From a virus, in the IMG/VR virus record IMGVR_UViG_3300042893_001701, positions 1 through 64,000 of that record: a stretch of 64,000 bases of DNA. One strand, written 5' to 3'. Made by a program: the position numbers and the translations under genes. The first letter of the stretch is position 1. Each line of letters opens with the position of its first letter. This document shows, piece after piece, positions 6,166 through 64,000 of the stretch. A model generated the notes under the pieces. That model was not told where the DNA came from. It saw only the letters and a list, made by a program, of their open reading frames with translations, and made no database searches.

Positions 6166-6166
6166 G

Positions 6167-6634
6167 TTATTTGTTTACTACGCCTAACACGTAGCCTTTA
6201 GAAAGAAGGTACAGTTCTTTATATTTAAGATGAAACGCATCAAACACACTAGCAACTGCCATGCTTCCAAACAATACAATGACTGTTTCAAAGTATGATG
6301 TAAACGCTACATCAATTGCATTTTCTATTACATACTTAAGTGTAAGACCTAATGTAATTAACACAATAAACAATAATATCTTTGGGCTCGCTTTAACTAA
6401 ACCTTTAAATAGACTAGGTTCCCATGCGCTAACCCATTGTGGTATATCTGAAGCTAGTTTAATAATTCCTATGGTGCCTACAATAATCGTTGGCATGACA
6501 AGTCTACTGGAAACAGGCGCCTCAGTAAATCCTAACTTAATTGCAAAGTATGCAAAAGGTAAAACATATCCTATTAGAAATCCAATCCAATAGTAAGTAT
6601 TCTTTAACTTTGCATAGTTAGGTGTGGTGCTCAT
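6167..6634 (-). CDS. Four-helix membrane protein, holin candidate
   Basis: A 155-aa protein with four hydrophobic segments (about residues 12-34, 45-66, 84-106 and 114-133), the first reading WIGFLIGYVLPFAYFAIKLG. It overlaps the preceding gene by one base at the stop/start junction. The placement between tail genes and next to a second single-span membrane protein fits a lysis cassette, but no endolysin is visible nearby, so the holin role is only a suggestion. It could instead be an inner-membrane channel protein used in DNA entry. Confidence 0.45.
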   Translation of the reverse strand: MSTTPNYAKLKNTYYWIGFLIGYVLPFAYFAIKLGFTEAPVSSRLVMPTIIVGTIGIIKLASDIPQWVSAWEPSLFKGLVKASPKILLFIVLITLGLTLKYVIENAIDVAFTSYFETVIVLFGSMAVASVFDAFHLKYKELYLLSKGYVLGVVNK

Positions 6635-27995: not shown

Positions 27996-28664
27996 TTACT
28001 TCTTGACAAGTATGTCGGCTTCGTATAGGAAGTCATCGGTGTCTTCGGTGACCCAAGCATGTTCTTGCTCGCAACTATATTCTTGCGTGTTGATCTTCCA
28101 CGGTTTACCTTCATACTTCTTTGTCACGAAACTTGGTTCGTACCATTTCAAGATCCGATTGTTAGGCTGTAGGGCAAACTGTCCTGTCTCCAACATGATG
28201 AAGTGATGGGACTTATGTTCTTGCGGATCTTCGGATAACGTGAAGTCCATCCCGTTGTTCTCGTTAGCTCCCCACTGGATCGTGTACAGGTAAGTACCTT
28301 CGAGCGTTGTCCGGTTTTTCATCCTGACATCGACACTAGCATTATACACATAGTTCAGGGTTACTAAGCTGAATACTTTAGAGAAGCAGTCCCATAACTG
28401 TAGACTATGGAACGGGTAAGTCTCCCAGACCTTTTCGTCTTCTGGTATCTTCCATGCCAAGGCAGAGATCGGTAATTTGTCCCGCATCATGCCATACTCG
28501 GTCAATACTTGGAACAAAGCGGCAGACCCTTCGTTACATCGGATCGAGATCAAGATCGCCTTGGTATACTTGCCTCGGTAAATAGGATTCTCAGGATCAT
28601 CGAAGAAGAACCCATCTCGTACGAACACCTTCATTGGCGGCAAACTGGCTTCAATGTATGGCAT
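27996..28664 (-). CDS. Conserved-looking early phage protein, 222 residues
   Basis: The first leftward gene after the divergent region. The 222-aa protein starts MPYIEASLPPMKVFVR and contains LRWGANENNG-like and DFTLSEDPQEHKSHHF segments. It is rich in Trp and Tyr. GC content and codon choice are visibly higher than in the tail and giant genes. It looks like a conserved early phage protein but I cannot assign a function. An extended -10 promoter lies 21 nt upstream of its ATG. Confidence 0.6.
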   Translation of the reverse strand: MPYIEASLPPMKVFVRDGFFFDDPENPIYRGKYTKAILISIRCNEGSAALFQVLTEYGMMRDKLPISALAWKIPEDEKVWETYPFHSLQLWDCFSKVFSLVTLNYVYNASVDVRMKNRTTLEGTYLYTIQWGANENNGMDFTLSEDPQEHKSHHFIMLETGQFALQPNNRILKWYEPSFVTKKYEGKPWKINTQEYSCEQEHAWVTEDTDDFLYEADILVKK

Positions 28665-43595: not shown

Positions 43596-43627
43596 CCAGG
43601 AATATAAGCTGATTACTTATATCCTGG
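43596..43627. terminator. Bidirectional terminator between converging transcripts
   Basis: CCAGGA-TATAAG on one side (with one bulged A) pairs with CTTATA-TCCTGG around a 7-nt loop. On the plus strand TTTATTTATTTT follows; on the minus strand it lies 5 nt after the stop codon of the giant gene. It separates the rightward early arm from the leftward giant gene. Confidence 0.75.
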
Positions 43628-43632
43628 TTTAT

Positions 43633-46600
43633 TTATTTTAATATCATAGCTTGTGATTGTCTGTAACGCACGTACTGTCTCCATTGAATGTTCTTAACTA
43701 AACGATATGGATTAGTAGTAGGTCTACGCATACGACCATATTTATTAAACCAATCTCTATAAATATTTTCATATTTTGCATACCTACCATTACGTCCGTA
43801 ACGATAACGTCGTGGTGTATACTTTTCATAGTTTACAATATCATAAGCAAAACCTCTAAGGGTTCTTCCTAAAGTTGCTTGTCTTGTATCCAGCATTTCA
43901 CGCAATACAGGAATTCTAGCAGCTTGTTCTCTTAACTTAGTGCCTGCTGCCAAATCACTTGCACCTGTTACAGTGTTAGCAATTCTACCAATTAAACCTA
44001 AACTAGCAAGTTGATTTAAAGATTCAAAAACATTTCTTTTTTCTACAAGTGTTTTAACAGCGCGTAAAATAGGAGATATTCTACCTTCAAATGCTTCTTG
44101 TGTATTGTATAAAATATTCATTATATCTAAGGCACCATTGCCAATACGTAAACCAAAATTTTTACTTAATGGTATCCAACCATTACGCATTTGGTATTTC
44201 ATAAAGTCATCATATTCTTTTTCTTCTTCATCAATATATTGTCCATACCAACCATCAAAAAAGTCAGACATAAATCTCCACCATCTAGGATTATTTAAAC
44301 GGTCAATCCAGTTTTGTATTGAACGTACAGGGAATGATACGAATGGAATATCAGCAAGTAAACGTTGTTCTAAAGGTGATCTTAATCCATAATTAAACCA
44401 ACTACGTAAAGAAGCAGTAACAGACTCATCAAAAGTTTTATTGTATATCATTAAATTATATAAGAAGTTTGTTATACGAGCACTGTTTTCAATCTTAGTA
44501 TTAATGTCATCATATAAATTAATTAAAGCGCTTGATAAAGTTTTAAAAGGAAAGAAACCTTTTCTATCTCTTCTAATTTTTCTAGCATCTGTAATCATTT
44601 TTTTAATTTCTTCATAAGTATTTGTACTTGTATCGTTGTCATCATACCCACGATATCTTTCAAAAACTTCTGGAAGAAGTTCAAAATTATCTTTACGTAA
44701 ATAATCTGATGTAGCTGATGTGTACATAAAAGCACTTAATTGTTTTAGTATATCTTTTTTCCATTTATTATCTTCACCACTAATAAGTTTAGATAATGAA
44801 GGCGCATTTGTACGCACGTTATTATTTTCGTCCCGTGAATCAATTCTTAAACCAGCAATCATCTTGCCATTTATTTCACGGTTATCATATAGTTCAATAT
44901 ATTCACCGAATTTAATATTAGATATTAAAGTAACAACATCGTACAATGTTTCTTTATATTTATCTACATTTTTAAAATTGATTTGTTTTATAATTCTTAT
45001 TAAACGCTCAACTTTATTTAAATTAAATTTAACGCGTGGGTTATCTATTGTTCTACCAATAGTATAATAACTTTCTAAAATTTCTTTCATCAAGTTAATA
45101 TTTTTTTCGATAACTTTAGCATCAGGTACAGGCATTTTTAATTGATTTAAAATATCTTCATAATATAAACCAGCACTAACAATTGTTGCTGTATGTTCGT
45201 CGCTATATTTTTCATAAAGATTATATAGTTCTAATGATGTCATTGTCATATGCGTAAAATCTTTAGAGTCAACTACCTTAGGAAGTATTTGCGCGTTACT
45301 AAATAATTGATACACAGTATCGTTTAAGTTTCTGAACAAGAAAGCTGCACTAAACTTAGAAACATTCTTAGAAAAAATTTGTAACTTCCATGCAAACTTT
45401 TCAAGTCCATTAGGAATTATTGTAGACTTATATGTATTCTCCATTGTTTGCATCCAAGTATCCAAATCAATAAAACCAATAATAGGTCTTACACCTTGGT
45501 CATTGTTGCCTCTAGCAACTTCATAAATTTCTTTTAGTTCACTTAAACTTCTAATAGGTATTTCTTTATACGTAGGAGTTAAAGCTCTATTGTTTTCTAG
45601 TATAATTTTAGGATCAATTTTTTCATAGACCTGACCATTAAAAACAATTTTTCCTCCATCTGTTTGCCACTTTTTAAGTTCTTCCATATTATTAAACTTC
45701 AAAGATTTAAATTCTTCTTCTGTAAACTTAGTAAATAGTTTAGTCTTTGTATCCTTATTAGGATCAAACTTTCTTATTTGATCAACAATAGAACGGTAAG
45801 CACCTTCATCTTCATAAGGAGGTTTTACAATAACTAAACGGAAATCACCTTGACGTTCTTTCATGAAGTTATAAATAATTTTAAAACTTAAATCTAAATT
45901 ATTAGAATCAATCATGTTAGTTAACAAGGTAACATTGTTAGTCATTTCTAATGTAGATCTTTCACGATTTTTATTTAAATCTTCTTGAGTTAAATACCGT
46001 GGTTTACCAACACTACTATCGCCCATTCCATATCCATCAACAGTTCTTAATAATAAAATACCACCACCAATATTATTTAATACTGCATTTTGTAACGCGT
46101 TTGTTTTAATTTCTTCTTTGTCTTTTTCTAATTGTTTATTTTCTTCTTCTAATTTAGCAATAGGATTTTTGTTTTCTGCATACCAAGCTTTAATTCTTTC
46201 AATATTTTGAACAGCTGTTTTTAATTTGCTTTGTTCTTTTTCTTGCAACTTAATTTTATTTTCAGTTTCTTTAATAAGCTGCTCGTTACTTGATTTTTTA
46301 TTTTGAAGCTCTTCTAATTTAGCATATTGCTTTGCATTAGCAGTGTCGCGAATAGCATTACGTACACGTCTTGTGCTTAATTCATTTTGTGCAGTAGTTT
46401 TTAAATTAAGTTTCTTTATAATTTTTTTAGTATTTTTTATTTGTTCTTCAATATTATCTGTTGAAGTTAAAATTAAATCTATTTCAGTTCTAAAATTATT
46501 AATAACGTCATCAATCTTTTCTATTTCAGAATTAAAAGTAGAGTACTTTAAACGATCTGTTATATCTTTAGATACTTCAGGCATTGTAGCTTCTAATAAT

Positions 46601-49600
46601 TCATCAGATGTTTTTGAAATAATAGGACCGTTATTACTACCAGCAACGCTTACACTTAAGTGTACGTCGTTGTGTTCACTAATAGCTTCTTTAATATCCT
46701 CATCTAATAAATCATCTTCTGGTGTAAATACAGTACGATTACCTTCTTCATCAACAATAAACCAACCTTCAGTCATATCATTTACGTTTTGGAAAAAGTT
46801 ATAAATAATAGTTTCTTTACCATAACGATTTTTAAAAACTTCCATAAAGTTAGGATCTCTTAAACGATACATTAAAGATAAAATGTTACGGGTATTTTTT
46901 ACTAAGTTAACTTTATTTATATCAAGTTTATATTTACTTACAAACCGTTCACTTACTACATTAGCAATTGATAAAACATCTCGTAAAAATGTAGATAGTT
47001 TATAGAAAGGAATATTCATTGATTCAAAAAATCTAATACTATTTATTAAATCATTTGAATATTGCATATAATTAACAGGATTTATTAATGCATTATTTAA
47101 TTGAATAACTTTATTAAACATTGTAGTAACAAAAGTATCAGGCATAAATAAATTTCCTAATAAAAATAACTTAGCACGTTCAACAATTAAAGCATTAATA
47201 TCATTTAGTGCTGGCTTTTCTTCTGTGTAATTTTCTTTAAGAGATACATGACTATCAGGATTTTGTTCAAAGTATTCTTGGTTAATACTTCCTGATCCAA
47301 TTTTATCTAGTTTTAAATCAATACGCTCACGCATATTTCTATCTGTATTAATAGCCATACCAAATAAACTTTCAATATTATTACTACCTAATATAATTTT
47401 TCTAATACTTTTTTTAGTGGTAATTTCATCAACAGCTTGTCTATTTAATAATGAACGTTGGTTAGGATTTGTATCAATACCATCATGTTTATTCATAGAT
47501 ATATCTTTTTGAATTAATCGAGACATATTATTCAACGCTACACGTTCAATAACAAACTGATTTAAATAACCACTCATTAGTTCTTCTATACTTTCTCTAC
47601 CATTTAAAAAACCATTAAGTGTTTTAGGATTATTAAAGTAAAACATTAATAATTCTTTAACAAAGCTATTAGATATTGTTTCTTCGGGATTATATTTACT
47701 CAGTTGTTTAATGTAGTTAGCAATAACAGGATCATTAGTTTTACTAGAAGACTGCAAGAACGTTATATATTCTCTATAAGTAACAGTGTCTTGGTTAACT
47801 AAATCAGAAAGATTTTCCAGCTCAACAAATCCTTGTTTGTATTCTTCTACAAGTCTAATTAAATCATTAATAATTAAAGGCACATCTTTAACAAAGAAAC
47901 GCATGCTACCTTTAGGATTATTAATAGCACTGTTACCTGTCTTACCCGTTTGTTTAATAGTTGTTAATAAATTTAAAATTTCGTCAGGACTTAAATCAGT
48001 AACATCTTTACCTATGATAGCTTTTAATAATGAAGCGATAGTAACTTCGCCTTCTTGGTTAGCTGCAGCTCCAATAGATTTCCAAAACTCACCTGTTTTT
48101 GATAAGTTAATACGTGGATATATTGAAAGGAACGAGGATATAAATTGATCTTTACGTTTATTACCTGTGTAATTAACACCATTTTTAGAAGCACGACCAC
48201 GGCTTGTAGTAAATTGTTCAATCTTTTTAGTTAAAACAAAACGAACAAATCGTTTATAAAGACGTGCAAATTCAGGATCTTTATCATTTGTAATAATATT
48301 TTGTTCTTCTTCTGTAAAGTATTTTAAATAGACATCAGTAAGATCTTTATTAAGTTTTACATCGTTACCAAACATTACTTTATTTTGTGTTAAAGCAGCT
48401 TCTAAAGTATAAAGTAAATCAATGTTTTCTTTATTAGTATTGTAATATTCTAATACCTTTTTATTGTCTTGGTAATCATTAATTGTTTTAATAACACCAG
48501 CAAAGTCATTGCCTTGATTAGTCATTCTAATATGCGCATTTACGTATACTTTTAAATTAGCAGTATTAGAAGTATCTAATTCAATAATAGTATTCTTAAC
48601 TGTTTCCCCAAGTTGAGCTAGTATATCTGGTTCAATTAAAACATACTCTTCGATTTCTAGATATTCTTTATTAGGTCTTACATCTTTATTAAATGTATTT
48701 TTACCTGTTTGGTTACGAGTAAATTTATAACTAATTAAATCAACGTTACCAACTTTATGTTCGTTTTTAATTAAATCTAGTTCTTCTTTTCCAAACATTT
48801 CTTCATTAGATTTTTCAAGATAGCTCACAAGATTAATTACATTACCTTTACTATCTTTCTTAACTTCTTCATCATAAGTGTAGTAATTTAAGTCAGTAGA
48901 AAGCAAATTTTTTAACGGAGCATCAGGACCTTCTACATCATTTATTTTTAACAAAGCCATACCTAAAGCATCACCGTCGTTATCAGCACCCATCATGTTA
49001 TATGCATAAACGTTTATATTAGCAGCGTAGGATTTACTATAACCTATAGCTTTAAAGACAGGCACAGCTGCATAATCTTGAACTGGTGAACGAGCAGCTA
49101 GTAAATATGTATACGTTTGTTTTATAATTAGTGCACTAAGTTTGTTTACATCTGTTACATTCGCTTTTAATTCTTTATATAAAGCTTCGTTTTCTTTTGC
49201 AAAAATACCACGAGAGTTTAAATACTCTTCACGTTCTTCATCTGTTTTATAAGTTAAAGCAGTTTCAATGTACTCTTTAATTTTTTGTTTGTTTGTTAAC
49301 TCTTCAGTTTTAATTAACGTACCACCATCACGTTGGTTACGTTCTTCAATAGCTTTCCAAGCAGATTCAGATAAATTAATTTCACCGGCGTCAAGAGTAA
49401 CATCAGCAAGATACTGTTGTCGTATACCTTCCCAACGTTTAAACGTAGATTTATAATAAGCACTTTGTTTACCGTCATACATTTTTTGTAAGACGTTACT
49501 TTCTGTATTAGTAACTAGCTTTTCAACTTCCTTTTGATAACCTATTGTACTGTTATTAGAAGTATGGATAAGCAATAATAGTTGTAAGTATTTAATACCT

Positions 49601-52600
49601 TGGTTTCTTACATACTCATGTATTTTTTTATTCTGAAAAGCTTTTGATAATAAACTTATATATTTTTCAAAAGCTTCTTCACTATTTACGTCTTCTTCTT
49701 TTTCAAGATTAATCGCTTCTTTAATAACAGTTTTAAATCCTAAAGCACGTACATCACTTAATAAGTTTAAGTTACTGTAGTCAGGGTTAAATACTTTAAA
49801 GAAGTTATCTTTACCAATTTTTGTAAATATTTGATTCATTACTGTAGGTGATAAAGACTGACCTTTAATTGGGTTATTATTACCATCTACAATAGTTCTA
49901 ATTAACTTACCAACTGCATTAACTTTAGTGATTGTTTGCAACGCTTGTGCAGTATTTTCATGGTCTGCATAAACGTATAACAAACCTCTGACATATTTGC
50001 TTTCTGTTAAGTTGCTAATAATATAACGACGTTCATGTAGTTTATTTTGATCTGTGTCAGTGTCTAAATCTTTCTGATTAAAAATAGCAGGTTTAACAAT
50101 TGTAGGTGTAACAACTTGTATACCTTTTAAATCGGTGATATCTTTTTCTTTATAATCTCTCAATAAAAGAACTTGATATAATTTTTCTTTACTTATACCT
50201 GTAAATTCTGGCAGGTTCCCTAACTTACTTTGAATAACATCTGATAATTCTTCAAATATTTCGTAAGTTGTTTTACCGTCAATTAACATAATATTATCTT
50301 TACCAGACTTAGTAATTAAAGGTAAAAATACTTTTCGTAAGTGTTCGTCAATAAGTTTAAAGTAACTTTCAGTGCGTTCAGGTACAACACTGTTACCACG
50401 ATTATCAGTTTCTTTAATTAAATAAGCACGGATATAGTTAAATAACATTTCAGCATAAGCACCAGCAGTACCACGACTAAAGACTGAATCAGCAGATGCA
50501 GCAAAGTATGCACCATATGTCTTGTATAAGTTTGGTATATATCTTACAGCTCCTTTAAAGCCGTAGTGCAATCCTAACCAAGTCTTATTACCTTGCCCCC
50601 AGTTAGTTGCTCTAGCCCAATCAGCATCAATTGCGATAACGTCTAAAGGAATTCGTGGGTCTTTAACAAAAGCTACAGGTACTGTGACCCCAAATTGGTG
50701 CACCATTGAATCTTTTTTATATTCATTGTATAAACTTTCAGACATAATATTAGGCATAAAAATTTGAGTATTAGACGTTTTAGTCTTTCGTATGAACTGA
50801 TCGCTTATTGTTTTATTATTTAAATATTTAATAGGGTCTGCTAAAAATGTTTCTAATAACTTTTTACCAGGCGCTTGTTTTTCTTTAATATCTCCATAAA
50901 TATTATTAAGAAATCCTACTGTAGTATACTTAGCTAAAAGATGTTTAGCACTTAGCATTGTACGAATAGAGTTTGTCATTAATGTAAATGGAAAATTAAA
51001 ATCATACTTAGTTTTATATTTAAGCACAGCACCCATGCTACCGTCAGAGTTTAATCCAAGATCTATTTTTTCTTCTTCTAAAAATTTAGCATCAAAACTG
51101 TCTAAGTTATAGTCATAACTGTAATCAGAATTTATTTGATTGATTAAGGATCCAGGTTCTAGTGCTTTGTACTTAGCTGTAATACGGTTATAAATACCTG
51201 AATATATTTCTTTTATATTAATTGCTGTTAACTTTTGATTAGATTGATATAAAGAAAGTTCTGCAAAAAATTGATTTTTAATAATTTTAGATATGTTAAT
51301 AACTTGTAAATAATTATAGTTACCTGCAAACTTTTCATGGGTCAAAGTACTGTCATATAATTCTTTAATAATTTTAAGCTTATCGTCTACTTGTGCTTTA
51401 GTATCATCTTTTTTAAAGTTAACAAACTTGTCTTCACTTTTAATAATCCATTCAATTAGTACTTTAATTGCATCTTTGCTAGAATCTTTACCCTCTGAAA
51501 AATGTAATTCATCTTGTTTTAAGTTAGGAATAATAACAAGTTTTTTATCACTCTTAGTATCTTGCCAATAGAAGTGTTTGTTTTCATTAATAAATTCTTT
51601 TAATTCATTAACAGTAAATTGATAACCTTTTTTATTTTTAGGGTTTAACGCTACTTCTATTTTCTTTTCTTGTATTTGAAAACCTTTACTAGTACCACCA
51701 GAATATTTTAAATGTGCAGGAATGTAACCGTATTTTAAATTAATAGTTAAAGTATTTGATTTTGCATTGTATACAACATTATTTGCTTCATTGTATTCTT
51801 GATCTAGTACCGTAAAAATATAAGTATTATTAGTTTCGTCAGTAGCATCTTTAATAACTTTACTTAATACTGTATTTGAAACTGTTCTTAAAACTTTAAT
51901 ATCATTTCCTTTAGTAGGATCGTCATACATTACTTTAACGCCTTCTTTTTTTAGAAGTTTGTCTTGGTCTATTTCTTCTTGTGGTAAAATACGTGATGCT
52001 ACATCTTCATATTGTTCATCAGTCATTCTATCAGATGGTATTTCACCCGTAATTAAAGTTAATATTGATTCATTTTTAATACGTTCAAGATTATCTTGAA
52101 TACCAGTTAATGTATGAAGGACATCTTTGTATACTAAAAGAACAGCATCAGTTGACTTTTCTTCTAAGGTACGATCACCTTTATAGTTTTCTAAAAATGT
52201 TTTTGTTTGTAGTAAAGCTGTATAACGATCGTTTACTAAAGCTTTAAACACTTCAAACTCATTGCTAAAATTATCTTTTAGTAAGTCGTCAAATTTAATA
52301 CTTGTATACTTTAAACTTTCTTCATAGGTGTTTAAAAGTCTTGTTACATTTGTAACAATAGCTGTGTTAGATTCAAAGAATTTTTGATTATTATCAGTAG
52401 CTTCAGTAATAACATTATAAATAGTTTTAATTGTTTTATAATCAGCTACTTTATTATTAAATAAAATCTCACCATCTTTAACTGAAACCCCTTTGTAATC
52501 TCTAATATTTAAAAGATTCTTTAAAGATTCAATAAGTTCTGTTTTAGTTTGTTTTAAAATAATCGTATGATCTTTTATAAACTCTTCATAAACTATTTTA

Positions 52601-55600
52601 AGTAAAGCAACAACACCGGTGTCTTTAATATTTTCTTCAGCTTTATTAAGAATACTTAGTTCTTTATTAATTTGTTCTAAAGCATCTTCTGGTTTTAATG
52701 TACCATCTAATACTTGAACTAATCTAGAATCTATTGTTTTTTCAAGCGTCTTTTTTAATTTATCTTCGCTAAGATCTTTGCTACTCAACATTGTGCTTAA
52801 GTTTAATAAAGCTTGTACTTTATTTTGAAGATTATTAAAAGCTACCTTTTGTTGATTTTCAAACAACGCCAATGATTTAGGACCTGTAGAACTACCTATG
52901 TTTGCGGTAATATTATTTAAAGCAATACCAATAGTTTTAGCATAACCAAAACTATTGTTGTTAATTTTACGTGCAACATCTAGTATCTTTAATAAAATTT
53001 CTTCATTAGAAACTTTTAAAGTAGCTTGTTCTTGCTGTAAACGTACAATTAATTTTTGACCTTCTTCAATAGTTTTATTTATTTTATCTAGTTCTTCTTG
53101 ACGTGCAAGTACAATTTCATCTGATGTAGCACCTAACTTTAAAGCTTCTATTAAATTATTATTAGCTAATATTGCAACATCAATTAATTCTAAACGTTTG
53201 TTAACATCTAAAGCATCACCTTCTTCATACAACTTAATGCCTGTTTGACTAATTGCTTCTAATGTAATCTCTGTTTTAACTGTTGTTCCTGCTTTAGTTG
53301 CACCGTAATCAATTTTTAGTGCACCACTTAAATACTGGTTATATGTGTTTGTTACATCAACAATTAATTTTTCTACATACTCAATAATAATTTTTTGAAT
53401 AGCAGGGTTTCTATTATTTAAACTAATACCTTCCATAAATTTAAGTATTAAATCTTCTTTAATACTGTTTTGTTCTATAATATCTTTTGAATTAATATGC
53501 TTTAATAAAGAATCGTTAATGTATTTAATTGAACCTGTAGATACATCCATAATTTGTTTACGAATATTATCATTAATAATATAGCCAACTTGTTCAGATG
53601 CATATCTTACACGTTGTTTTATTTTTAACTCTGCTGTTTTTCTATTAATTAAATTTAAACGTTTCTTAAAAATATCTGCTTCTTGTGAGGTCAACAAAGG
53701 TAAACGTTCATTTAATTGTTTAATTGTATCAGCATATTCTTTTTGCAAAGCAACTAAATATTCTTTAGTAATTTCATCATCATTTAAATCAGTTTTATCT
53801 ATGTTGTCAAATATTTTTTTAACATCTGTTTCTTCTCTTAAGTTACGATAGTATTCGTTTACAATTAAATTTTCTCCAACACGTGAAACAAAATCTTTAA
53901 TTAAACTAAAATCAAAACGATAACCGTTATGTGCTACGATATCTACACTTTGATCACCAATAAGTTGTAAGAAAGTATTAATAAAGTTATCATTGTTTTT
54001 GACATTTCTTACACGTGTAATTAACAAGTCCATTTTTTCTTTTGCTTTAATTTCAAAATTTTCTTCTGTTAAGTTTTCGTTTTTCCATTGTTCTTTCCAT
54101 ATAGATTTTTGTTGTTCATAAAACTTAAGCATGTTTTCTTTATAAGATCCATCATCATTTAAACCATCAAAGAATAAAGCACTGTTAATAAATACATCGT
54201 TAATAATAACTTCATCATTCTTTTCGTAAATCATTGTCATTTGATAAGGTTTGAATTGTCCGTCTTGTTTGTAAGTTTCTAAGTCAACCACTACAAAGTT
54301 TTTAGCATTTGGTTTTTGATGTATGTAATTTAAAAACGTAATTAAAGAGTCTACAATAGAGTTGTGTAAAGCGTAATCACCGCGTGACATAATTTGTTTT
54401 TTAATAACATCTACATTAAAGTTCTTATAACGTGACTTTAATGTTGATAAAACAATATCAATAACATCAGATTCTTCTTCATCTTCTTTAATTTTATAAT
54501 AGTGTTTAAATACGTCAATGTTAGATAGTTTATCTCCAGCAACTTCAAGTTCTTTTTTGTATAACATTTCACGTTCAGCTCTTATTTTTAATAAAGCTTC
54601 TCGTTTTTCTTGAAGTAAAACTTTTAAGTCAGCTATATTTTTTTGAACTTTAGGCACATTTAGTAATTCATCTTTTACTTGAGCAATATCATTTATTTGA
54701 CCGACAATAGCATTTTTATTTTCATTAGCTTGTTTTAATTGACCGCTAGATTTATTATTAGCAACAAAACGAATTAATGATTCTAATGTAGCATTGTTAA
54801 TATCTAAAGTAGGGCCACCTAGTGCAGCATATAAACTATTAAATAATTTTTTATTATTATCTGAGTCATTAATAGTAGGTACTTTTTTTACACGTTTTAA
54901 TATGTCATCTTCTAATAAAAGATCTTTAGTTGTAAGCTCCCATTGCTTAATTAATTTTTCATTGTTTAAAATAATTTCATCAATATTGTTATTATATAAG
55001 TTATTAATTTTATTATTAACAATTGATAGCAAAGATTCTGCGTGTTTTAATTGATCTATTGTTAAACCTGATAAATTAATATTTATATTTTTACTTCCGA
55101 AATCAGACTTAATAGGCCTATAACTTTCTTTCTTTTGAGCAACACTCATTAAAAGATTGTAAGCTACTAAAGGATCTGTAATATTTTCAAACAAACGTTC
55201 TGTGTCTTCTGTTATACGTTTTACTTCTTGATTAGTTAATAGCCCGCCTAATTGTAATTCACGTTTTACAAGTTGTAATTCTAAAACAGTATTAAAGTAT
55301 AAGTTAATTTTAAATTCATTCTCACCTTTTAATTCTGTTAATGTAATAGCTTCTGTAATATTAATTAACTTTTTAGATTTAAGATTTTCAAGATGCGTTT
55401 TTAATATAGCTGTTTCATTTTCAATAGCTTTAATTAAAACAAAAGGCTTAATAAGCGTATCTTCTGTAATTTTACCAAGGTCTTTACTGTCTGCTCTACC
55501 ATATGAAATATTAAAAGCACGTACTAACATGTACGCTTTTTTAAGGTATTTCATTTTTTCGTTAAATTGTTTATTGTGTCTGGCTTGAATTAAATCTTTT

Positions 55601-58600: not shown

Positions 58601-61600
58601 TTCTCGGCATCAGGTGCTTCGTAACTAAACATTTTTGATGTATCATTACCTTTATAAATTAAATGCTCGTTGTTATAGGTATATCTTACAGCGTTGTCTT
58701 TAATTATATTAGAAGCTTTTAATCGGGCTCTTATTTCTTTTAAAAGAATAGTTTCCTGTGCTGTAATACTATTATCTTTTTCTTTAATTCTTAATAAACT
58801 TTCGTTATGAGTTAATAAATTAAGATAATCAACATTATTATAACCATCTAATTCGTTAGTAATGTTTCTATCCATGAATTGTTTAATAGACACTAAGTAA
58901 GATTTAATAATATAACCATATATTAAATGATCAGCAATACGTTCAGCGCTTGTATAACCATCTTTTTTATTTTTTTCTTGCTCATATATTTTTGTAGCAA
59001 CAGCATAAATAGACTCTTTTACTTTTTCTGGTACAACAAAAAGTTCTTTTAATTTCTTGTAAAGAGTTTCACTATTGATGTTACGATTATTAAAATCTCT
59101 GAATAGTGTTCTAATACTTGTAAAATTTAAATAGTTAATACTATTGTTTTTATACTTTTTATGTAATACATAATGTCTTCTTTTAGCAGCATTTACTAAA
59201 TCATGTAGTGTTTTTAAATAATACTGCTGTGCGTTTAATACACTTAAACCCTGTAAGCCGGCGTAAATATTATTTTTTACACCATCAAATAGTTTAACTG
59301 GGTCGTATTCTTTTTTATAAGGATCTTTAAATGCAGTATCTAAAACACTGTAAAATACCTGATTTACTTCATTGTATAGTACATTAAATGTTTTTATATT
59401 AGAAGAAGATACTTCATCACTTAAAGATGTTTGTATATGCTTTTCAATAATAGGTACAATTTTTTGATAAGCCGTGTTGTTTGTTCTTTCAATGTATTTA
59501 ACAATACCGTAAATAGAATTTTTAAGTTTTAATAATTCTGAAATGCTATCAGGAGTTAAGATATTAAAGTAATTTAATTTATTTAATAAAGGACTTCTTC
59601 CATATTCATTTTGTAGATACTGTAAAGCATTAACAATCTTATTAAATAAACCTCTACTTTTTAAACGTTGTACTAATTGTGCGTTTAAATCTGTTTCAAT
59701 ATTATTTAAATTATAGTCTGCATTAATAAACTTACTGTTAAAAAAGTTAACACCAATTGTATGAATATCATAATCTTCTTCTCCGATTAAATTATAAAAG
59801 TCAAAAAATATAGTATTTAACTTTGCACTTTCTACAAGTTTTTGAAATGGTTGTGTATTAAATAAGTTAACACCGTTACCATAAGCTTTTAAAATAGGTA
59901 CAAATCCTTGTAGATTTTTTTTACTATAACGTAAAGCATAAAATTCACTTAACTTTTTAAGTACTTCAAAGGCAGAGGTTTTATTGCTTGTGTCTAAACT
60001 TTCTTTAAATACTAAATTAATATCGTCTAACCAGTAATCTACAATAACTTTGTTACCTTGTACGTTAATGATATCGGGTATAGGTACAATGTTATCGTCA
60101 TCTATTTTATGTATATCAATAGTAGGTACATCAGATTGTTTAAGCTTTCCTAACTCTTGTATTTCAGCGTATTTACTTTCAGATAATACGTAAACTTCAA
60201 TAACATCTCTTTCTCCAGTTTCATAATTGTTATTCATTACTCGTTTTAAAACGGTTGAAATAGATTTAGTATTATCAAAACTCCAGTTTTTATCAGGAAC
60301 AACTACAACCGCACTGCCATCATCTGTTACAATACGTACGTCAACATTTTTTACTTGTTCATTTTTTGCAACACGATCTTGCATTAAGGATAATAAGTTA
60401 GAATCATTATTTTTTAAAGCTTTAATTAATAAAACGTTAAGCGTAGGAATACCTTTACCATCATTTCTATCTTTGTAATCAGGTATATCTTTAGTACGGT
60501 AAAGTTTAGGTTCTCCTGCTTTGTTATATGCTAAAGCAAAATCATCACCATCTGTATTTACTACGTTATTAAAATAACGTTCAGCTACTTCTGGATCTTT
60601 AATCATATCTTCTAAAATAACATCAAACTTATTAAAAGGATCTACTGTAATTTTACTATTAATTTCTTTATAAAATTTAATTAAATCATTATAGTTTTGT
60701 TTTCGTATCTTATACATATTAACAGTACGTTTATATATAACAGATCCTTTATCAATACCTTCTCTACTTTGGTATTCTTTTAGGTCTTCATTTAATTCTT
60801 TAACAAACTTTTCGAGTCTAACAATATTAGTATTTTGTGCTTTACCTTTAACAGCTTTAGAATCTTTAAAAAATATATCTTTAATAATAGTTTTAATAGC
60901 TTCGGGTTTAATAAATACTTGTTGACGTATACCATCATCTGGACGTTTAATACTGTATCCTTTAAATTCATCAGCATTTAACTGTGTTAACTGAAGTAAA
61001 GTTAATAGCAGTAAAGTGTTTTTATTTCTAAGACTACCATTTTTATTGGTAAGACTTATTGCAAACATTTCTTTTTTATTATCATCTTTATCGTAGGCAT
61101 AAAATACAAATTTAGGATTTACAGGTTTACCACTTGTTAGATCATCGTTGTATTTAACAAGTGCATTATCAATATATAAACTGTAACTGCGATAGCGGTT
61201 ATCATAATACATATTAAAATCTATTTGATTTGTATTTAAATCTTGTTCAAAAATATTATTTACTAAACGTAAACGTTGTCTTAGTTCGGTTACACCAGGA
61301 TCTGTAAATAACTTATAAATTTCTTCTGTAGCTCCTTCTTGTTTCATAAATACTTCTTTACTGATGCTAAAAGCATTATTAGTTAACAGGCTGCCATACT
61401 CTTCAATCAACATATCGTAGCTTGCTAACGCAGCTGCGATAAGATCTTTAACTTGATTAGATGTTTTAGATGCAGCTGTTCTTAACCCAACAGTTTCTAC
61501 AAAACGGTTAAAGTCAGTTCTTGAAAGACCGTGAATAAATATCATGTCAAACACAGAGTATTGTACAACTTTATTGTTAACCTTAAAATTAAAGTATATT

Positions 61601-64000
61601 TCATTATCTTTTAATTCTAAAGATTCAAAACCATCGAAACTTTTTAAAATAATTTTTGTAGCATAATCTTCTGTATAGTAGTCTTTAACTACGTGCAAAA
61701 TTTTAAAAAATATATGACTATATTCATTTGGATTTTTATCTGCTTTAGCAGTAGCTAAGTCTTTAAAGAGTTCTTGAATTTCTTTTGATTTAAGAATAGC
61801 TTGTATTCTAATTGAAGGACTGGCTTCAGCGGTATATTTGTCAATACTTGTTTTTAAACTAAGCTCAAGATCTCTTAAATCCACAATAGCATCAGTTAAA
61901 GTACTAAACATTATAATACTTTTTTTATTGCGATTTAATATACCGTGTAATTGAGAGTTTGTTTTAGAAATTAAATTTTTAAGAACATCATCTTTGTTTT
62001 GATCTGTAGCTGCGTCTAGCAACCAGTTTTTAATATCAGCAGTAGAAGCGCCTTTGCCTAAGTAAGAACCAACTTGTTTAAATAAAAGCGTTTTAAATAA
62101 TTTTGTATACTGTACTTGTTTTTTAAATTTATCTTCCATTTTAATCTGAACATCAACATTACCGTCTTTTAAATATGCAGCAGTAATACGTTTAGCTATG
62201 TCTTCAACATTTCCACTTGTATCTATGTCTTTAAATTTAATAATTTCAGGATACTTTATAAATAACCACGCTAGCTTATAACTAAAAGCACCAACAGCTT
62301 CTTCGTACTCTACAGTGCTACGATTGTTTTCTTTTAAATATTCATAAATGTTTACATCTTTTTTGCCACGAAGAAACAAAGACATATTTAAACGTATTTG
62401 TAAATAATCAGGCAAAATAATATAATTTCTATTATTCACTAAACCTTCAACTAATTTTGATCTAGCAAAACGACCGGTTCCTTTACCTTTAGTAGCAGGC
62501 AAACTTACAATGTCTAAAGATAACTGAGTCCTAACTTCAGTAGGACCGTATTTATCTTGCATAATTTTTTCTAATATTTTATTTCTTTTTTCTTCTGGAC
62601 TTAAACGTGCGTCATCTTTAGCAGCTTCATCTGTTACAGACTTAACTTCTTTTTCTTCTAACTCATGTATAATACGTTCATCTTCTGCTTTGTTAAATCT
62701 TTGTATTACTTTGTCTTTTAACCTAGATTCTTCTTCAGTTAAAACAGCGTTCACATTCATTTTAAATCTAACAATAGAAGCTTCTCTTAAACTTTTTAAA
62801 TCTAACGGATTTAATAAGGTTCTAGTAAAGTCAGATTCTAAAAAATTATTAACAATATTATTAGCAATTCTTTCATTTTTTACTGCTTTTTGTATATCAT
62901 AGTCTTCAATGTTATCGGGAAGTATTTCACTAATCGTTGATCGTTTAAATAAAGTTAACTTATTTTTATCGTGTTGTAAGTAGTTGTATAAAAATGATTT
63001 AACATACCGGTAGATAGGTGTGTATTTTAAAGAAGTTTCAAATCTTCCTTGAAGTTCTTCTAAGGTAGCTTGGGTAAACTCATCTATTTTACCTGTAGTT
63101 TTTGCAACTTGATCGTCTAAATTTTTAATAATTTCTGCAGCTTTAACAAATGCTTGTATAATTGGATTTTTATTTTCCTTTGGATCAGCACCATCTTTAT
63201 ATAACTTCATCTGTTCTTGCATTACATAACGGTATAAAAGATCACTAGATATTTGACTAGAAGCATAAAATGTTGTAGAACCTACTTTAGTTCTAGCTAT
63301 AGTTTCCATTGTTACAATAGCTTTACGTAACGTCTTATCTTCTAATAGTTTGTCTTTATCTTCCTGTTTAAGATTAGATTCATTAATATACGCAACGATT
63401 GTTTTAACTTTATTTTGTGGTGTAAGATCTTTAAACGTTTTTAAATCTAAATTAAAATGTTTGTGATTATAATTTAATAAATCTTCAAATACATTTTTAC
63501 CTAATAAAGTATTTAATAACTTGTTAATTTGTAACTCAAAATTATCTTTTAAAACTACACCTACTTCTTTAATTTCATTACCTGTTTCATACACTTTAAT
63601 AAAGTATGCCTGAGTAATTTTTTCATTTACGTTTTCTTTTGTTTCATTTCCGTCTTTATCTTTAACTGTAATTTGAAATTGAATCCCATTTAATAAATTA
63701 ACACGTTGTAATTCATTTAAAGTTTTAACTGTTAATTCAAATTTAACAGGATCAAAACCTTTAATAAGACTAACAGGATCTTTTTTACCGTTTCTAATTA
63801 ACTTTTGCAAATCAGCAAGTTCTTTTTTATTAACATCAATCTTTTTATTTACTTCATCTTCAGATGTTTTTAATGCAGCTATTCTTGTTTGAGTGTCATT
63901 AACACGTTTGATTAAAGCTTGATAGTCAACATCTGTTTTTAAAAAATCTGCTTTATATTGTTTTTCAAACTCTTGTTTCTTTAAAAGTAAACCATTCTTT
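43633..64000 (-). CDS. Giant virion RNA polymerase polyprotein, 5' end outside window
   Basis: One frame runs from the window's right edge to the TAA at 43633, giving 6,788 visible residues (numbered here from the edge); the start is outside. Most of the chain is charged helix and coiled coil. An RNA polymerase core is visible. GFKGAV (residue 4480, Lys4482) fits the first double-psi barrel; ARSPVQDYAAVPV (about 4969) and then GADNDGDALGM (Asp5006, 5008, 5010) fit the metal-binding loop of the second barrel (usual form DFDGD). Two-barrel single-chain polymerases are known from crAss-like phages (phi14:2 gp66) and act from the virion. A DEDD-type exonuclease-like segment lies at 3239-3510. Near the C-terminus, SAAFLFRNLNDT (about 6220) and IPFVSFPV (about 6552) resemble motifs of injected polyvalent proteins. 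The final 100 residues are Arg/Tyr-rich. Confidence 0.85.
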   Translation of the reverse strand, partial: KNGLLLKKQEFEKQYKADFLKTDVDYQALIKRVNDTQTRIAALKTSEDEVNKKIDVNKKELADLQKLIRNGKKDPVSLIKGFDPVKFELTVKTLNELQRVNLLNGIQFQITVKDKDGNETKENVNEKITQAYFIKVYETGNEIKEVGVVLKDNFELQINKLLNTLLGKNVFEDLLNYNHKHFNLDLKTFKDLTPQNKVKTIVAYINESNLKQEDKDKLLEDKTLRKAIVTMETIARTKVGSTTFYASSQISSDLLYRYVMQEQMKLYKDGADPKENKNPIIQAFVKAAEIIKNLDDQVAKTTGKIDEFTQATLEELQGRFETSLKYTPIYRYVKSFLYNYLQHDKNKLTLFKRSTISEILPDNIEDYDIQKAVKNERIANNIVNNFLESDFTRTLLNPLDLKSLREASIVRFKMNVNAVLTEEESRLKDKVIQRFNKAEDERIIHELEEKEVKSVTDEAAKDDARLSPEEKRNKILEKIMQDKYGPTEVRTQLSLDIVSLPATKGKGTGRFARSKLVEGLVNNRNYIILPDYLQIRLNMSLFLRGKKDVNIYEYLKENNRSTVEYEEAVGAFSYKLAWLFIKYPEIIKFKDIDTSGNVEDIAKRITAAYLKDGNVDVQIKMEDKFKKQVQYTKLFKTLLFKQVGSYLGKGASTADIKNWLLDAATDQNKDDVLKNLISKTNSQLHGILNRNKKSIIMFSTLTDAIVDLRDLELSLKTSIDKYTAEASPSIRIQAILKSKEIQELFKDLATAKADKNPNEYSHIFFKILHVVKDYYTEDYATKIILKSFDGFESLELKDNEIYFNFKVNNKVVQYSVFDMIFIHGLSRTDFNRFVETVGLRTAASKTSNQVKDLIAAALASYDMLIEEYGSLLTNNAFSISKEVFMKQEGATEEIYKLFTDPGVTELRQRLRLVNNIFEQDLNTNQIDFNMYYDNRYRSYSLYIDNALVKYNDDLTSGKPVNPKFVFYAYDKDDNKKEMFAISLTNKNGSLRNKNTLLLLTLLQLTQLNADEFKGYSIKRPDDGIRQQVFIKPEAIKTIIKDIFFKDSKAVKGKAQNTNIVRLEKFVKELNEDLKEYQSREGIDKGSVIYKRTVNMYKIRKQNYNDLIKFYKEINSKITVDPFNKFDVILEDMIKDPEVAERYFNNVVNTDGDDFALAYNKAGEPKLYRTKDIPDYKDRNDGKGIPTLNVLLIKALKNNDSNLLSLMQDRVAKNEQVKNVDVRIVTDDGSAVVVVPDKNWSFDNTKSISTVLKRVMNNNYETGERDVIEVYVLSESKYAEIQELGKLKQSDVPTIDIHKIDDDNIVPIPDIINVQGNKVIVDYWLDDINLVFKESLDTSNKTSAFEVLKKLSEFYALRYSKKNLQGFVPILKAYGNGVNLFNTQPFQKLVESAKLNTIFFDFYNLIGEEDYDIHTIGVNFFNSKFINADYNLNNIETDLNAQLVQRLKSRGLFNKIVNALQYLQNEYGRSPLLNKLNYFNILTPDSISELLKLKNSIYGIVKYIERTNNTAYQKIVPIIEKHIQTSLSDEVSSSNIKTFNVLYNEVNQVFYSVLDTAFKDPYKKEYDPVKLFDGVKNNIYAGLQGLSVLNAQQYYLKTLHDLVNAAKRRHYVLHKKYKNNSINYLNFTSIRTLFRDFNNRNINSETLYKKLKELFVVPEKVKESIYAVATKIYEQEKNKKDGYTSAERIADHLIYGYIIKSYLVSIKQFMDRNITNELDGYNNVDYLNLLTHNESLLRIKEKDNSITAQETILLKEIRARLKASNIIKDNAVRYTYNNEHLIYKGNDTSKMFSYEAPDAEKVKKQLAENKLDPVENIKIDEYISQYVLKKFGYSLDNADRLSLTDLASDVILTATEYLYSKETKETKRYVSELGTLEKTINKTDTLKKEMIAKGFTEAQIRVMFDVGNANISTGRIITDTSEYKKMLTDSDDLTKETINLFINEVSAIKKGTYKIKKVELSYKEIYEVHTLDLLENSKKFLDYFKDVIRNYSDDTDTEEIVKVMNKFGITRSEVFSILEGEYEDISHFINAHVKNIETAKKDKLSTEDYTKATVLMLFINYHKQQFIENKLNIKDYGLDADKIKQVLYYEKLRDKNNFLNYKTINMNDVLGDGNAITNSINFYFNKGFVTLRKINSRVTFLNDRLQRIILDGTNLKDNDEYTGTRHGIIYKENNIKTVATETQRTLYEPLFREGEAGFVGGRMYELMLMRKDFVLDMMAENSSKTKDVGSSNVLYNSIRNNFTDVLAFIKKDFKPYEFIRVRDVATAVGLFLKEKSAVNYFIEQYNYLVSEAKKEYIVNNSSSKKSPDVLADEFDAELAKRVKQIISISDNNNKIVEFNDSNIKAVIGYIFTARFVDSKDIPEIQNKLAASIKDQLKTDLQYKNYKFKTITSVIYRIIKSDKTNLEKKEELAKLQGKTFDQLSVEQKSIIETGLKINNFINASENFYNPKQWYDTFDVAYGKKNRIGAATTIKMQDEANEELEIDALDKTVIKMQSSLDTSTANARRLDRQNTLFTIKDAPSHYVYDAVRPLNIPQDINDQADLATFILQEKLVEADQKVKEEEKIIKEKKLELINNLFKLYPGLRNFFLDRAENKINLELGKQQLRLDKLKNEYESKIVKEYEAYLKDDLEVKAIEATKEFKIYKLLNEEFEYFIKTNTPANVIFDTLFDFYKDELAVYEVNNVKDLFNIYKDINNKKIIDKLNALRDQRDARGKGLKITSKKFTYVSYKDKRVIIDEKILSLKEQRDNIRLGDVDQIDFALNALTELITDFKKEGKIDLTRTFDTIDRKDNFKELTETAKDLIQARHNKQFNEKMKYLKKAYMLVRAFNISYGRADSKDLGKITEDTLIKPFVLIKAIENETAILKTHLENLKSKKLINITEAITLTELKGENEFKINLYFNTVLELQLVKRELQLGGLLTNQEVKRITEDTERLFENITDPLVAYNLLMSVAQKKESYRPIKSDFGSKNININLSGLTIDQLKHAESLLSIVNNKINNLYNNNIDEIILNNEKLIKQWELTTKDLLLEDDILKRVKKVPTINDSDNNKKLFNSLYAALGGPTLDINNATLESLIRFVANNKSSGQLKQANENKNAIVGQINDIAQVKDELLNVPKVQKNIADLKVLLQEKREALLKIRAEREMLYKKELEVAGDKLSNIDVFKHYYKIKEDEEESDVIDIVLSTLKSRYKNFNVDVIKKQIMSRGDYALHNSIVDSLITFLNYIHQKPNAKNFVVVDLETYKQDGQFKPYQMTMIYEKNDEVIINDVFINSALFFDGLNDDGSYKENMLKFYEQQKSIWKEQWKNENLTEENFEIKAKEKMDLLITRVRNVKNNDNFINTFLQLIGDQSVDIVAHNGYRFDFSLIKDFVSRVGENLIVNEYYRNLREETDVKKIFDNIDKTDLNDDEITKEYLVALQKEYADTIKQLNERLPLLTSQEADIFKKRLNLINRKTAELKIKQRVRYASEQVGYIINDNIRKQIMDVSTGSIKYINDSLLKHINSKDIIEQNSIKEDLILKFMEGISLNNRNPAIQKIIIEYVEKLIVDVTNTYNQYLSGALKIDYGATKAGTTVKTEITLEAISQTGIKLYEEGDALDVNKRLELIDVAILANNNLIEALKLGATSDEIVLARQEELDKINKTIEEGQKLIVRLQQEQATLKVSNEEILLKILDVARKINNNSFGYAKTIGIALNNITANIGSSTGPKSLALFENQQKVAFNNLQNKVQALLNLSTMLSSKDLSEDKLKKTLEKTIDSRLVQVLDGTLKPEDALEQINKELSILNKAEENIKDTGVVALLKIVYEEFIKDHTIILKQTKTELIESLKNLLNIRDYKGVSVKDGEILFNNKVADYKTIKTIYNVITEATDNNQKFFESNTAIVTNVTRLLNTYEESLKYTSIKFDDLLKDNFSNEFEVFKALVNDRYTALLQTKTFLENYKGDRTLEEKSTDAVLLVYKDVLHTLTGIQDNLERIKNESILTLITGEIPSDRMTDEQYEDVASRILPQEEIDQDKLLKKEGVKVMYDDPTKGNDIKVLRTVSNTVLSKVIKDATDETNNTYIFTVLDQEYNEANNVVYNAKSNTLTINLKYGYIPAHLKYSGGTSKGFQIQEKKIEVALNPKNKKGYQFTVNELKEFINENKHFYWQDTKSDKKLVIIPNLKQDELHFSEGKDSSKDAIKVLIEWIIKSEDKFVNFKKDDTKAQVDDKLKIIKELYDSTLTHEKFAGNYNYLQVINISKIIKNQFFAELSLYQSNQKLTAINIKEIYSGIYNRITAKYKALEPGSLINQINSDYSYDYNLDSFDAKFLEEEKIDLGLNSDGSMGAVLKYKTKYDFNFPFTLMTNSIRTMLSAKHLLAKYTTVGFLNNIYGDIKEKQAPGKKLLETFLADPIKYLNNKTISDQFIRKTKTSNTQIFMPNIMSESLYNEYKKDSMVHQFGVTVPVAFVKDPRIPLDVIAIDADWARATNWGQGNKTWLGLHYGFKGAVRYIPNLYKTYGAYFAASADSVFSRGTAGAYAEMLFNYIRAYLIKETDNRGNSVVPERTESYFKLIDEHLRKVFLPLITKSGKDNIMLIDGKTTYEIFEELSDVIQSKLGNLPEFTGISKEKLYQVLLLRDYKEKDITDLKGIQVVTPTIVKPAIFNQKDLDTDTDQNKLHERRYIISNLTESKYVRGLLYVYADHENTAQALQTITKVNAVGKLIRTIVDGNNNPIKGQSLSPTVMNQIFTKIGKDNFFKVFNPDYSNLNLLSDVRALGFKTVIKEAINLEKEEDVNSEEAFEKYISLLSKAFQNKKIHEYVRNQGIKYLQLLLLIHTSNNSTIGYQKEVEKLVTNTESNVLQKMYDGKQSAYYKSTFKRWEGIRQQYLADVTLDAGEINLSESAWKAIEERNQRDGGTLIKTEELTNKQKIKEYIETALTYKTDEEREEYLNSRGIFAKENEALYKELKANVTDVNKLSALIIKQTYTYLLAARSPVQDYAAVPVFKAIGYSKSYAANINVYAYNMMGADNDGDALGMALLKINDVEGPDAPLKNLLSTDLNYYTYDEEVKKDSKGNVINLVSYLEKSNEEMFGKEELDLIKNEHKVGNVDLISYKFTRNQTGKNTFNKDVRPNKEYLEIEEYVLIEPDILAQLGETVKNTIIELDTSNTANLKVYVNAHIRMTNQGNDFAGVIKTINDYQDNKKVLEYYNTNKENIDLLYTLEAALTQNKVMFGNDVKLNKDLTDVYLKYFTEEEQNIITNDKDPEFARLYKRFVRFVLTKKIEQFTTSRGRASKNGVNYTGNKRKDQFISSFLSIYPRINLSKTGEFWKSIGAAANQEGEVTIASLLKAIIGKDVTDLSPDEILNLLTTIKQTGKTGNSAINNPKGSMRFFVKDVPLIINDLIRLVEEYKQGFVELENLSDLVNQDTVTYREYITFLQSSSKTNDPVIANYIKQLSKYNPEETISNSFVKELLMFYFNNPKTLNGFLNGRESIEELMSGYLNQFVIERVALNNMSRLIQKDISMNKHDGIDTNPNQRSLLNRQAVDEITTKKSIRKIILGSNNIESLFGMAINTDRNMRERIDLKLDKIGSGSINQEYFEQNPDSHVSLKENYTEEKPALNDINALIVERAKLFLLGNLFMPDTFVTTMFNKVIQLNNALINPVNYMQYSNDLINSIRFFESMNIPFYKLSTFLRDVLSIANVVSERFVSKYKLDINKVNLVKNTRNILSLMYRLRDPNFMEVFKNRYGKETIIYNFFQNVNDMTEGWFIVDEEGNRTVFTPEDDLLDEDIKEAISEHNDVHLSVSVAGSNNGPIISKTSDELLEATMPEVSKDITDRLKYSTFNSEIEKIDDVINNFRTEIDLILTSTDNIEEQIKNTKKIIKKLNLKTTAQNELSTRRVRNAIRDTANAKQYAKLEELQNKKSSNEQLIKETENKIKLQEKEQSKLKTAVQNIERIKAWYAENKNPIAKLEEENKQLEKDKEEIKTNALQNAVLNNIGGGILLLRTVDGYGMGDSSVGKPRYLTQEDLNKNRERSTLEMTNNVTLLTNMIDSNNLDLSFKIIYNFMKERQGDFRLVIVKPPYEDEGAYRSIVDQIRKFDPNKDTKTKLFTKFTEEEFKSLKFNNMEELKKWQTDGGKIVFNGQVYEKIDPKIILENNRALTPTYKEIPIRSLSELKEIYEVARGNNDQGVRPIIGFIDLDTWMQTMENTYKSTIIPNGLEKFAWKLQIFSKNVSKFSAAFLFRNLNDTVYQLFSNAQILPKVVDSKDFTHMTMTSLELYNLYEKYSDEHTATIVSAGLYYEDILNQLKMPVPDAKVIEKNINLMKEILESYYTIGRTIDNPRVKFNLNKVERLIRIIKQINFKNVDKYKETLYDVVTLISNIKFGEYIELYDNREINGKMIAGLRIDSRDENNNVRTNAPSLSKLISGEDNKWKKDILKQLSAFMYTSATSDYLRKDNFELLPEVFERYRGYDDNDTSTNTYEEIKKMITDARKIRRDRKGFFPFKTLSSALINLYDDINTKIENSARITNFLYNLMIYNKTFDESVTASLRSWFNYGLRSPLEQRLLADIPFVSFPVRSIQNWIDRLNNPRWWRFMSDFFDGWYGQYIDEEEKEYDDFMKYQMRNGWIPLSKNFGLRIGNGALDIMNILYNTQEAFEGRISPILRAVKTLVEKRNVFESLNQLASLGLIGRIANTVTGASDLAAGTKLREQAARIPVLREMLDTRQATLGRTLRGFAYDIVNYEKYTPRRYRYGRNGRYAKYENIYRDWFNKYGRMRRPTTNPYRLVKNIQWRQYVRYRQSQAMILK

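What the first reader, a model, noticed from the sequence alone, without database searches (positions are those of the whole stretch)
43633..64000. A single phage gene longer than 20 kb
The minus-strand frame is open for 6,788 sense codons up to the window edge, so the protein is at least 6,788 residues. This is nearly twice the virion RNA polymerase of phage N4 (about 3,500) and about three times crAss-like phi14:2 gp66. All of it would have to be translated as one chain and, if virion-packaged like its relatives, fit in the particle. Such a size raises the question whether it is cleaved into parts.
Basis: partly seen in the sequence, partly recalled or inferred. Interest (0 to 1): 0.95.

Follow-up and report, generated by a model that had tools for sequence, protein, structure and literature searches.

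The report
Giant phage RNA polymerase, 7,858 residues
An uncultured, probably short-tailed phage and its relatives carry one intact gene for a single protein of about 7,600-8,400 amino acids, larger than any phage polymerase I found described, that contains the active-site motifs of a cell-type RNA polymerase and probably a DNA/RNA-trimming domain, and is most likely packed in the virus particle and injected to start transcription.

Summary
The minus-strand frame is open for 6,788 codons to the window edge. On the 69,981-bp contig it continues to an ATG at 67209, giving 7,858 aa (903 kDa). It is not an assembly accident: six further distinct relatives in IMG/VR (20-52% identity, aligned over most of their length) each have one uninterrupted frame of 7,596-8,437 aa.

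What it is: seven-way alignment leaves islands of invariance. These include the two-barrel RNA polymerase active site (K5542/K5552 barrel; RxPxQD...GxDxDGD, aa 6040-6080), a DEDD-exonuclease-like domain (D4309, E4311, D4433), an Ala/Gly-rich N-terminus and a basic C-terminus. Six of seven proteins contain no cysteine in 48,060 residues, a trait shared with N4 vRNAP and P23-45 gp96; the seventh has 34.

Best reading: a virion-packaged, ejected single-chain RNA polymerase. It works like the crAss-like phi14:2 enzyme, but sits in a lineage whose capsid, portal and terminase genes resemble Paenibacillus podovirus API480 rather than Crassvirales. RNAP identity rests on motifs and a weak profile match; structure prediction of the core failed. 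Packaging, ejection, activity and cleavage are untested. New variant of a known kind.

The parts
43633..64000 (-). Giant gene, window part (about aa 1071-7858 and stop). The whole gene is contig 43633-67209, 7,858 aa.
   Evidence: homologous open frames in six relatives
48970..48984 (-). D6076-x-D6078-G-D6080, predicted Mg-binding triad of the beta'-like double-psi barrel (DNDGD)
   Evidence: Asp, Asp, Gly and Asp invariant in all seven relatives; aligned by hhalign with DFDID of crAss-like RNAPs
48925..49122 (-). beta'-like barrel region aa 6030-6095: RSPVQD..(A)VPV.K.IGY...Y.MMGADNDGD
   Evidence: R6040, P6042, Q6044, D6045, P6050, K6053, G6056 invariant in seven
50410..50712 (-). Candidate beta-like double-psi barrel aa 5500-5600: G(N)K.WLG..GFKG with invariant K5542 and K5552
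   Evidence: assignment as the beta-side barrel by resemblance to the beta-subunit GDK..GRHGNKG motif (from memory), fold not confirmed
48130..48222 (-). Conserved T..R....K......G..RK block, aa 6330-6360, candidate bridge-helix/trigger-loop region
   Evidence: invariant T6334, R6337, K6342, G6349, R6352, K6353; function by position only
53830..54402 (-). DEDD-type 3'-5' exonuclease-like domain aa 4270-4460: D(L/M/I)ET (D4309, E4311) and AHNG..FDF (D4433)
   Evidence: invariant in seven; nearly all weak PDB profile hits are DEDD exonucleases; AF2 pLDDT 71.7, weak Foldseek/VIA matches to DexA, DnaQ, PolC exo
43636..44532 (-). Highly conserved basic C-terminal domain aa 7560-7858 (67 of the 341 seven-way invariant columns lie at 7601-7858)
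   Evidence: pI 9.75-10.6
43596..43627 (-). Stem-loop directly after the stop codon (CCAGGATATAAG...CTTATATTCCTGG), likely 3' end of the transcript
   Evidence: seen in sequence; hairpins at the same place in relatives

Best explanation
The gene encodes one ~0.9 MDa chain whose C-terminal half holds a single-subunit two-barrel (double-psi beta-barrel) DNA-dependent RNA polymerase, preceded by an RNase H-like DEDD exonuclease domain and a long fast-evolving region, with an Ala/Gly-rich, weakly membrane-like N-terminus and a basic C-terminus. It is most likely made late by host RNA polymerase from its own insulated promoter, packed in a few copies in the head, ejected largely unfolded through the tail with or ahead of the DNA, and refolded in the cell to transcribe early genes before host RNAP is used. 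Shown: the gene, its size, its conservation, the motifs, the missing cysteines, the promoter/terminator element as sequence. Inferred: RNAP activity, packaging, ejection, unfolding, early-gene targets.
For: Intact 7.6-8.4 kaa frame in seven distinct relatives. Invariant R-x-P-x-Q-D ... P-x-x-K ... G-x-D-x-D-G-D in all seven at 20-52% identity. hhalign of the 1,125-column core profile against a crAss-like RNAP profile put exactly RSPVQD...GADNDGD on RIPNQG...GSDFDID, E 0.02 for one comparison; two other domains of the same protein gave E 0.81 and 0.54. No cysteine in 48,060 aa of six relatives, against 32-53 expected per protein at the proteome rate and about 5 at the structural-protein rate. 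N4-like vRNAPs are reported cysteine-free, explained there by passage through the tail (PMC3915230); I counted 0 in P23-45 gp96 (5,002 aa), StenR_269 putative vRNAP and API480 gp16. The gene lies next to the major capsid gene on the late, structural strand. Conserved terminator hairpin, then extended -10 TATGCTATAAT (one relative TATGTTATAAT) 10-12 nt before the ATG without ribosome site in five of seven, fitting late transcription by host RNAP as in Crassvirales (PMC10136315).
Against: No Pfam, PHROG or PDB sequence hit for the RNAP core; hhalign probability only 2%; AlphaFold of aa 5330-6529 failed (pLDDT 38). The most distant relative, G011, has 34 cysteines, so cysteine avoidance is not essential to the family. 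No virion proteomics. Hydropathy shows only a few marginal N-terminal membrane-like peaks.
Confidence: 0.72

Rival explanations
1. The protein is a giant ejected inner-virion protein (channel-forming, DNA-protecting or host-takeover 'polyvalent' protein) that carries no working RNA polymerase; the DxDGD motif is degenerate or coincidental.
For: No database profile recognises an RNAP; most of the chain (aa 600-4200) is unassigned.
Against: The catalytic aspartates and flanking R-x-P-x-Q-D are among the few columns invariant at about 20% identity, in the register expected from crAss-like RNAPs.
Confidence: 0.15
2. The chain is a polyprotein, cut during head maturation into RNAP, exonuclease and structural pieces.
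For: Extreme size; head-maturation proteolysis is known in the Salmonella phage SPN3US, which also packages ejected proteins (PMC10052503, abstract only).
Against: No protease recognised among the proteins scanned; P23-45 gp96 stays full-sized in virions (PMC10770324).
Confidence: 0.12
3. It is a tape-measure or core protein with a fused RNAP, as in P23-45 gp96, so its length sets a tail length.
For: P23-45 precedent (PMC10770324); P23-45 gp96 is also cysteine-free.
Against: Portal, terminase and capsid are closest to podovirus API480 with a 12 nm tail (PMC6937236); RNAP lies in the C-terminal half here, N-terminal in gp96.
Confidence: 0.06
4. Assembly artefact or spurious frame.
For: None found.
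Against: Seven distinct assemblies with the same architecture.
Confidence: 0.01

Closest known systems
crAss-like phage phi14:2 virion RNA polymerase (gp66 in the literature; gp077 in KC821624)
   Same: Single chain, RxPxQ...DxDxD catalytic motif, two barrels (predicted here), part of the structural gene cluster
   Different: 2,180 aa with 2 cysteines versus 7,858 with none; no confident sequence similarity; capsid, portal and terminase here are not recognisably crAss-like; an exonuclease-like domain is not known in it
Other Crassvirales giant RNAPs (4,091-4,551 aa in the largest of the records seen; up to ~6,000 aa, PMC10136315)
   Same: Giant multidomain chains with a two-barrel RNAP
   Different: Smaller, Bacteroidota phages, different capsid/portal lineage
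Thermus phage P23-45 gp96 RNAP-tape measure fusion, 5,002 aa (PMC10770324)
   Same: Giant cysteine-free virion protein with DFDGD two-barrel RNAP
   Different: RNAP at the N-terminus, fused to a tape measure with metallopeptidase in a long-tailed phage
Phage N4 (Schitoviridae) vRNAP gp50, 3,500 aa
   Same: Giant vRNAP, reported cysteine-free, encoded near the capsid genes of a ~70-kb podovirus; ejection model
   Different: N4 RNAP is T7-like, not two-barrel
StenR_269 putative vRNAP (2,270 aa, 0 Cys) and API480 gp16 (1,631 aa, 0 Cys)
   Same: Cysteine-free large proteins in phages whose capsid protein is related to this one
   Different: Three to five times shorter; RNAP nature not shown for either; no DxDxD motif

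Membership tests
Two-barrel (DPBB) DNA-dependent RNA polymerase | DxDxD metal-binding motif in the beta'-like barrel, with upstream R-x-P | tested here: met
   GxDxDGD and RxPxQD invariant in seven; hhalign register match
Two-barrel (DPBB) DNA-dependent RNA polymerase | Second barrel with conserved lysines | tested here: inconclusive
   K5542, K5552 invariant in G(N)K.WLG..GFKG, but the fold was not confirmed
Two-barrel (DPBB) DNA-dependent RNA polymerase | Two double-psi barrels, bridge helix and trigger loop in 3D | tested here: inconclusive
   AF2 with 4 sequences, pLDDT 38
Two-barrel (DPBB) DNA-dependent RNA polymerase | RNA polymerase activity | not testable with these tools
   needs biochemistry
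Virion RNA polymerase | Present in virions and ejected | not testable with these tools
   inferred from location on the late strand, missing cysteines and analogy
Crassvirales | Recognisable Crassvirales portal and capsid | tested here: not met
   tblastn of the portal hits only API480 and SV21; the capsid hits Paenibacillus, Bacillus and Stenotrophomonas phages and one unclassified faecal record; distant kinship is not excluded
N4-type (T7-like) vRNAP, Schitoviridae | T7-like single-subunit RNAP domain | tested here: not met
   no T7-like RNAP family in Pfam or PHROGs at E<=0.1 for any 1-kaa piece; limited by sequence-profile sensitivity
DEDD 3'-5' exonuclease | Exo I DxE and Exo II with conserved Asp | tested here: met
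   D4309, E4311, AHNG..FD4433 invariant in seven
DEDD 3'-5' exonuclease | Exo III motif with the fourth acidic residue and RNase H-like fold | tested here: inconclusive
   no clear Exo III found; weak structure matches only

The most novel reading that the evidence does not exclude
A lineage of ~70-80 kb phages outside Crassvirales ejects a single 0.9 MDa transcription machine that carries both a two-barrel RNA polymerase and its own 3'-5' exonuclease (RNA proofreading, or trimming of host or phage nucleic acid). If the chain passes whole and unfolded through a short tail, it would be longer than any ejected phage polypeptide I found described.
Probability: 0.3. Interest if true: 0.82.

Novelty: new variant of a known kind. 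Interest (0 to 1): 0.66.

Why it matters
It raises the reported upper size of phage RNA polymerases from ~6,000 to ~8,400 residues. It places a two-barrel giant polymerase in a capsid lineage where I found none described, and joins it to an exonuclease-like domain. Because the gene is about a third of the genome in every relative, something selects for one continuous chain. It gives a sharp test of how far a protein can be threaded through a phage tail, and of cysteine avoidance as a marker of ejected proteins: six of seven relatives obey it, one does not.

Tried and rejected
Pfam and PHROG scans of eight 1-kaa pieces gave nothing convincing. tblastn of RNAP core and C-terminus against 50,697 phage records: no match. 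Genome-contig scan with the C-terminal alignment: no relative, so no host or prophage link. AlphaFold of the 1,200-aa core failed. Pfam beta' profile PF00623 hits none of these phages, though it hits all 14 control genomes. VIA-align top rows for the exonuclease model are helical matches outside the expected core and were discarded; RNase H-like/DnaQ rows (PolC exo Z 3.8, 3.9 A, 100 residues) lie in the expected part but are weak. Repeat search: no internal duplication explains the size, only short low-identity repeats. Early-region promoter search found no repeated motif for the phage RNAP; sigma-70-like sites equal the shuffle mean. I had thought missing cysteines were a family trait until G011 showed 34. 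Paper searches found no report of a phage protein of this size, in open-licence papers only.

Full report
Observation. The frame is as described: minus strand, 43633 to the window edge, 6,788 codons without a stop. The held contig is 69,981 bp; its last 10 kb (L003) show the frame running to an ATG at 67209, with an in-frame stop at 67222, so the protein has 7,858 residues, 903 kDa, pI 8.5. The start is supported by homology from the first residue (MALLFPRKP / MALLYPLKP / MALLLPR...) in relatives.

Not an artefact. A relative contig (IMGVR_UViG_3300025646_000028) holds a 7,903-aa homologue, 52% identical end to end. Using the terminase, whose copy in that relative is 83% identical, and then conserved C-terminal and catalytic motifs, I found five more distinct ones: 8,437 (two contigs with identical protein), 8,038, 8,228, 7,596 and about 8,057 aa, 20-52% identical, none with an internal stop. 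Gene order around it is the same where read: early + strand genes converge on the giant gene, the major capsid gene lies just upstream, and structural and packaging genes lie on the same strand.

Anatomy. In the seven-way alignment only 341 columns are invariant, gathered in islands: aa 1-600, 4200-4520, 5400-5600, 6000-6400 and 7200-7858. The rest evolves fast with indels. The 6040-6080 island reads R-x-P-x-Q-D...P..K..G...Y...GxDxDGD. This is the order of the RxP and DxDxD signature of two-barrel RNA polymerases; phi14:2 has YRIPNQG...TGSDFDID. hhalign of the whole core against an eight-member crAss-like profile chose exactly this register (E 0.02, probability only 2%), while two other domains of the giant gave E 0.5-0.8. 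The 5500-5600 island (GNKTWLGLHYGFKGAVR; K5542 and K5552 invariant) looks like the lysine-bearing beta-side barrel, about 500 residues upstream, which is the order expected for single-chain enzymes (PMC10770324). AlphaFold with four sequences could not fold the core, so the fold is unproven.

The 4270-4460 island carries D-x-E-T and AHNG-x-x-FDF, as in DEDD exonucleases. All 38 sub-threshold PDB profile hits at first, and nearly all of 43 later (best E 0.025), were TREX1/TREX2 or family-B polymerase entries matched in the proofreading domain. The AlphaFold model (pLDDT 71.7, pTM 0.64) has weak matches to DexA, DnaQ and PolC exonuclease. The third motif was not found, so catalytic competence is open.

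Cysteine. The window protein and five relatives contain no cysteine in 48,060 residues. At their own proteome rates 32-53 are expected each. Part of this is a trait of the structural module (4 Cys in 6,283 aa), but even at that rate about 5 are expected per giant (P about 0.007). N4-like vRNAPs are also cysteine-free, and the authors explain it by passage through the tail (PMC3915230). I find the same in P23-45 gp96, StenR_269 vRNAP and API480 gp16. The seventh relative, G011, has 34, so the avoidance is strong but not universal; the six are related to each other and are not independent samples.

Expression. Just upstream lies a terminator-like hairpin (sequence changes between relatives keep the pairing by eye) whose T-run leads directly into an extended -10 box, TATGCTATAAT (TATGTTATAAT in one), ending 10-12 nt before the ATG in five of seven relatives; no ribosome-binding site fits. 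This suggests an insulated promoter for host RNA polymerase and a near-leaderless mRNA. Two relatives (G010, G011) have a different upstream stretch with a possible ribosome-binding site.

Kin. Terminase, portal and capsid are nearest to Paenibacillus podoviruses API480 and SV21 (24-31% identity), not to Crassvirales. So function resembles the crAss/P23-45 polymerases while phage membership differs. Many genes have AGGAG-type ribosome sites (21 of 34 with a relaxed motif), which does not suggest Bacteroidota (general knowledge of that phylum); the host is unknown.

Verdict. Real, large and new as a size and lineage record; the kind of enzyme is known. RNAP identity is likely, while activity, packaging, ejection as one chain and any cleavage remain to be tested.

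Noticed in passing
contig 67210-67270 (L003:7210-7270), outside the window: Terminator hairpin running into an extended -10 promoter 12 nt before the giant gene's ATG, conserved in five of seven relatives; looks like an insulated promoter with a near-leaderless mRNA.
   Followed up: partly
window 44000-64000: GC falls to 25-29% over the giant gene against 31-43% in most of the rest of the window.
   Followed up: no
contig 67690-69759 (L003:7690-9759): Capsid protein of 689 aa, twice the 313-aa API480 capsid protein, with what looks like a large insertion in the middle.
   Followed up: no
window 27996-28664: Strong hit to PHROG 3704, labelled 'ferredoxin' (E 2.6e-52), beside the replication genes.
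   Followed up: no
window 12532-14067: Structural-module protein with a BspA-type leucine-rich repeat match (PF13306, E 6e-9).
   Followed up: no
G010 53345-65014 (contig IMGVR_UViG_3300039098_000035): A second very long gene, 3,889 aa, in the structural module of one relative.
   Followed up: no
L093/L094 (G011): The most distant relative keeps the motifs but has 34 cysteines, unlike the other six.
   Followed up: partly
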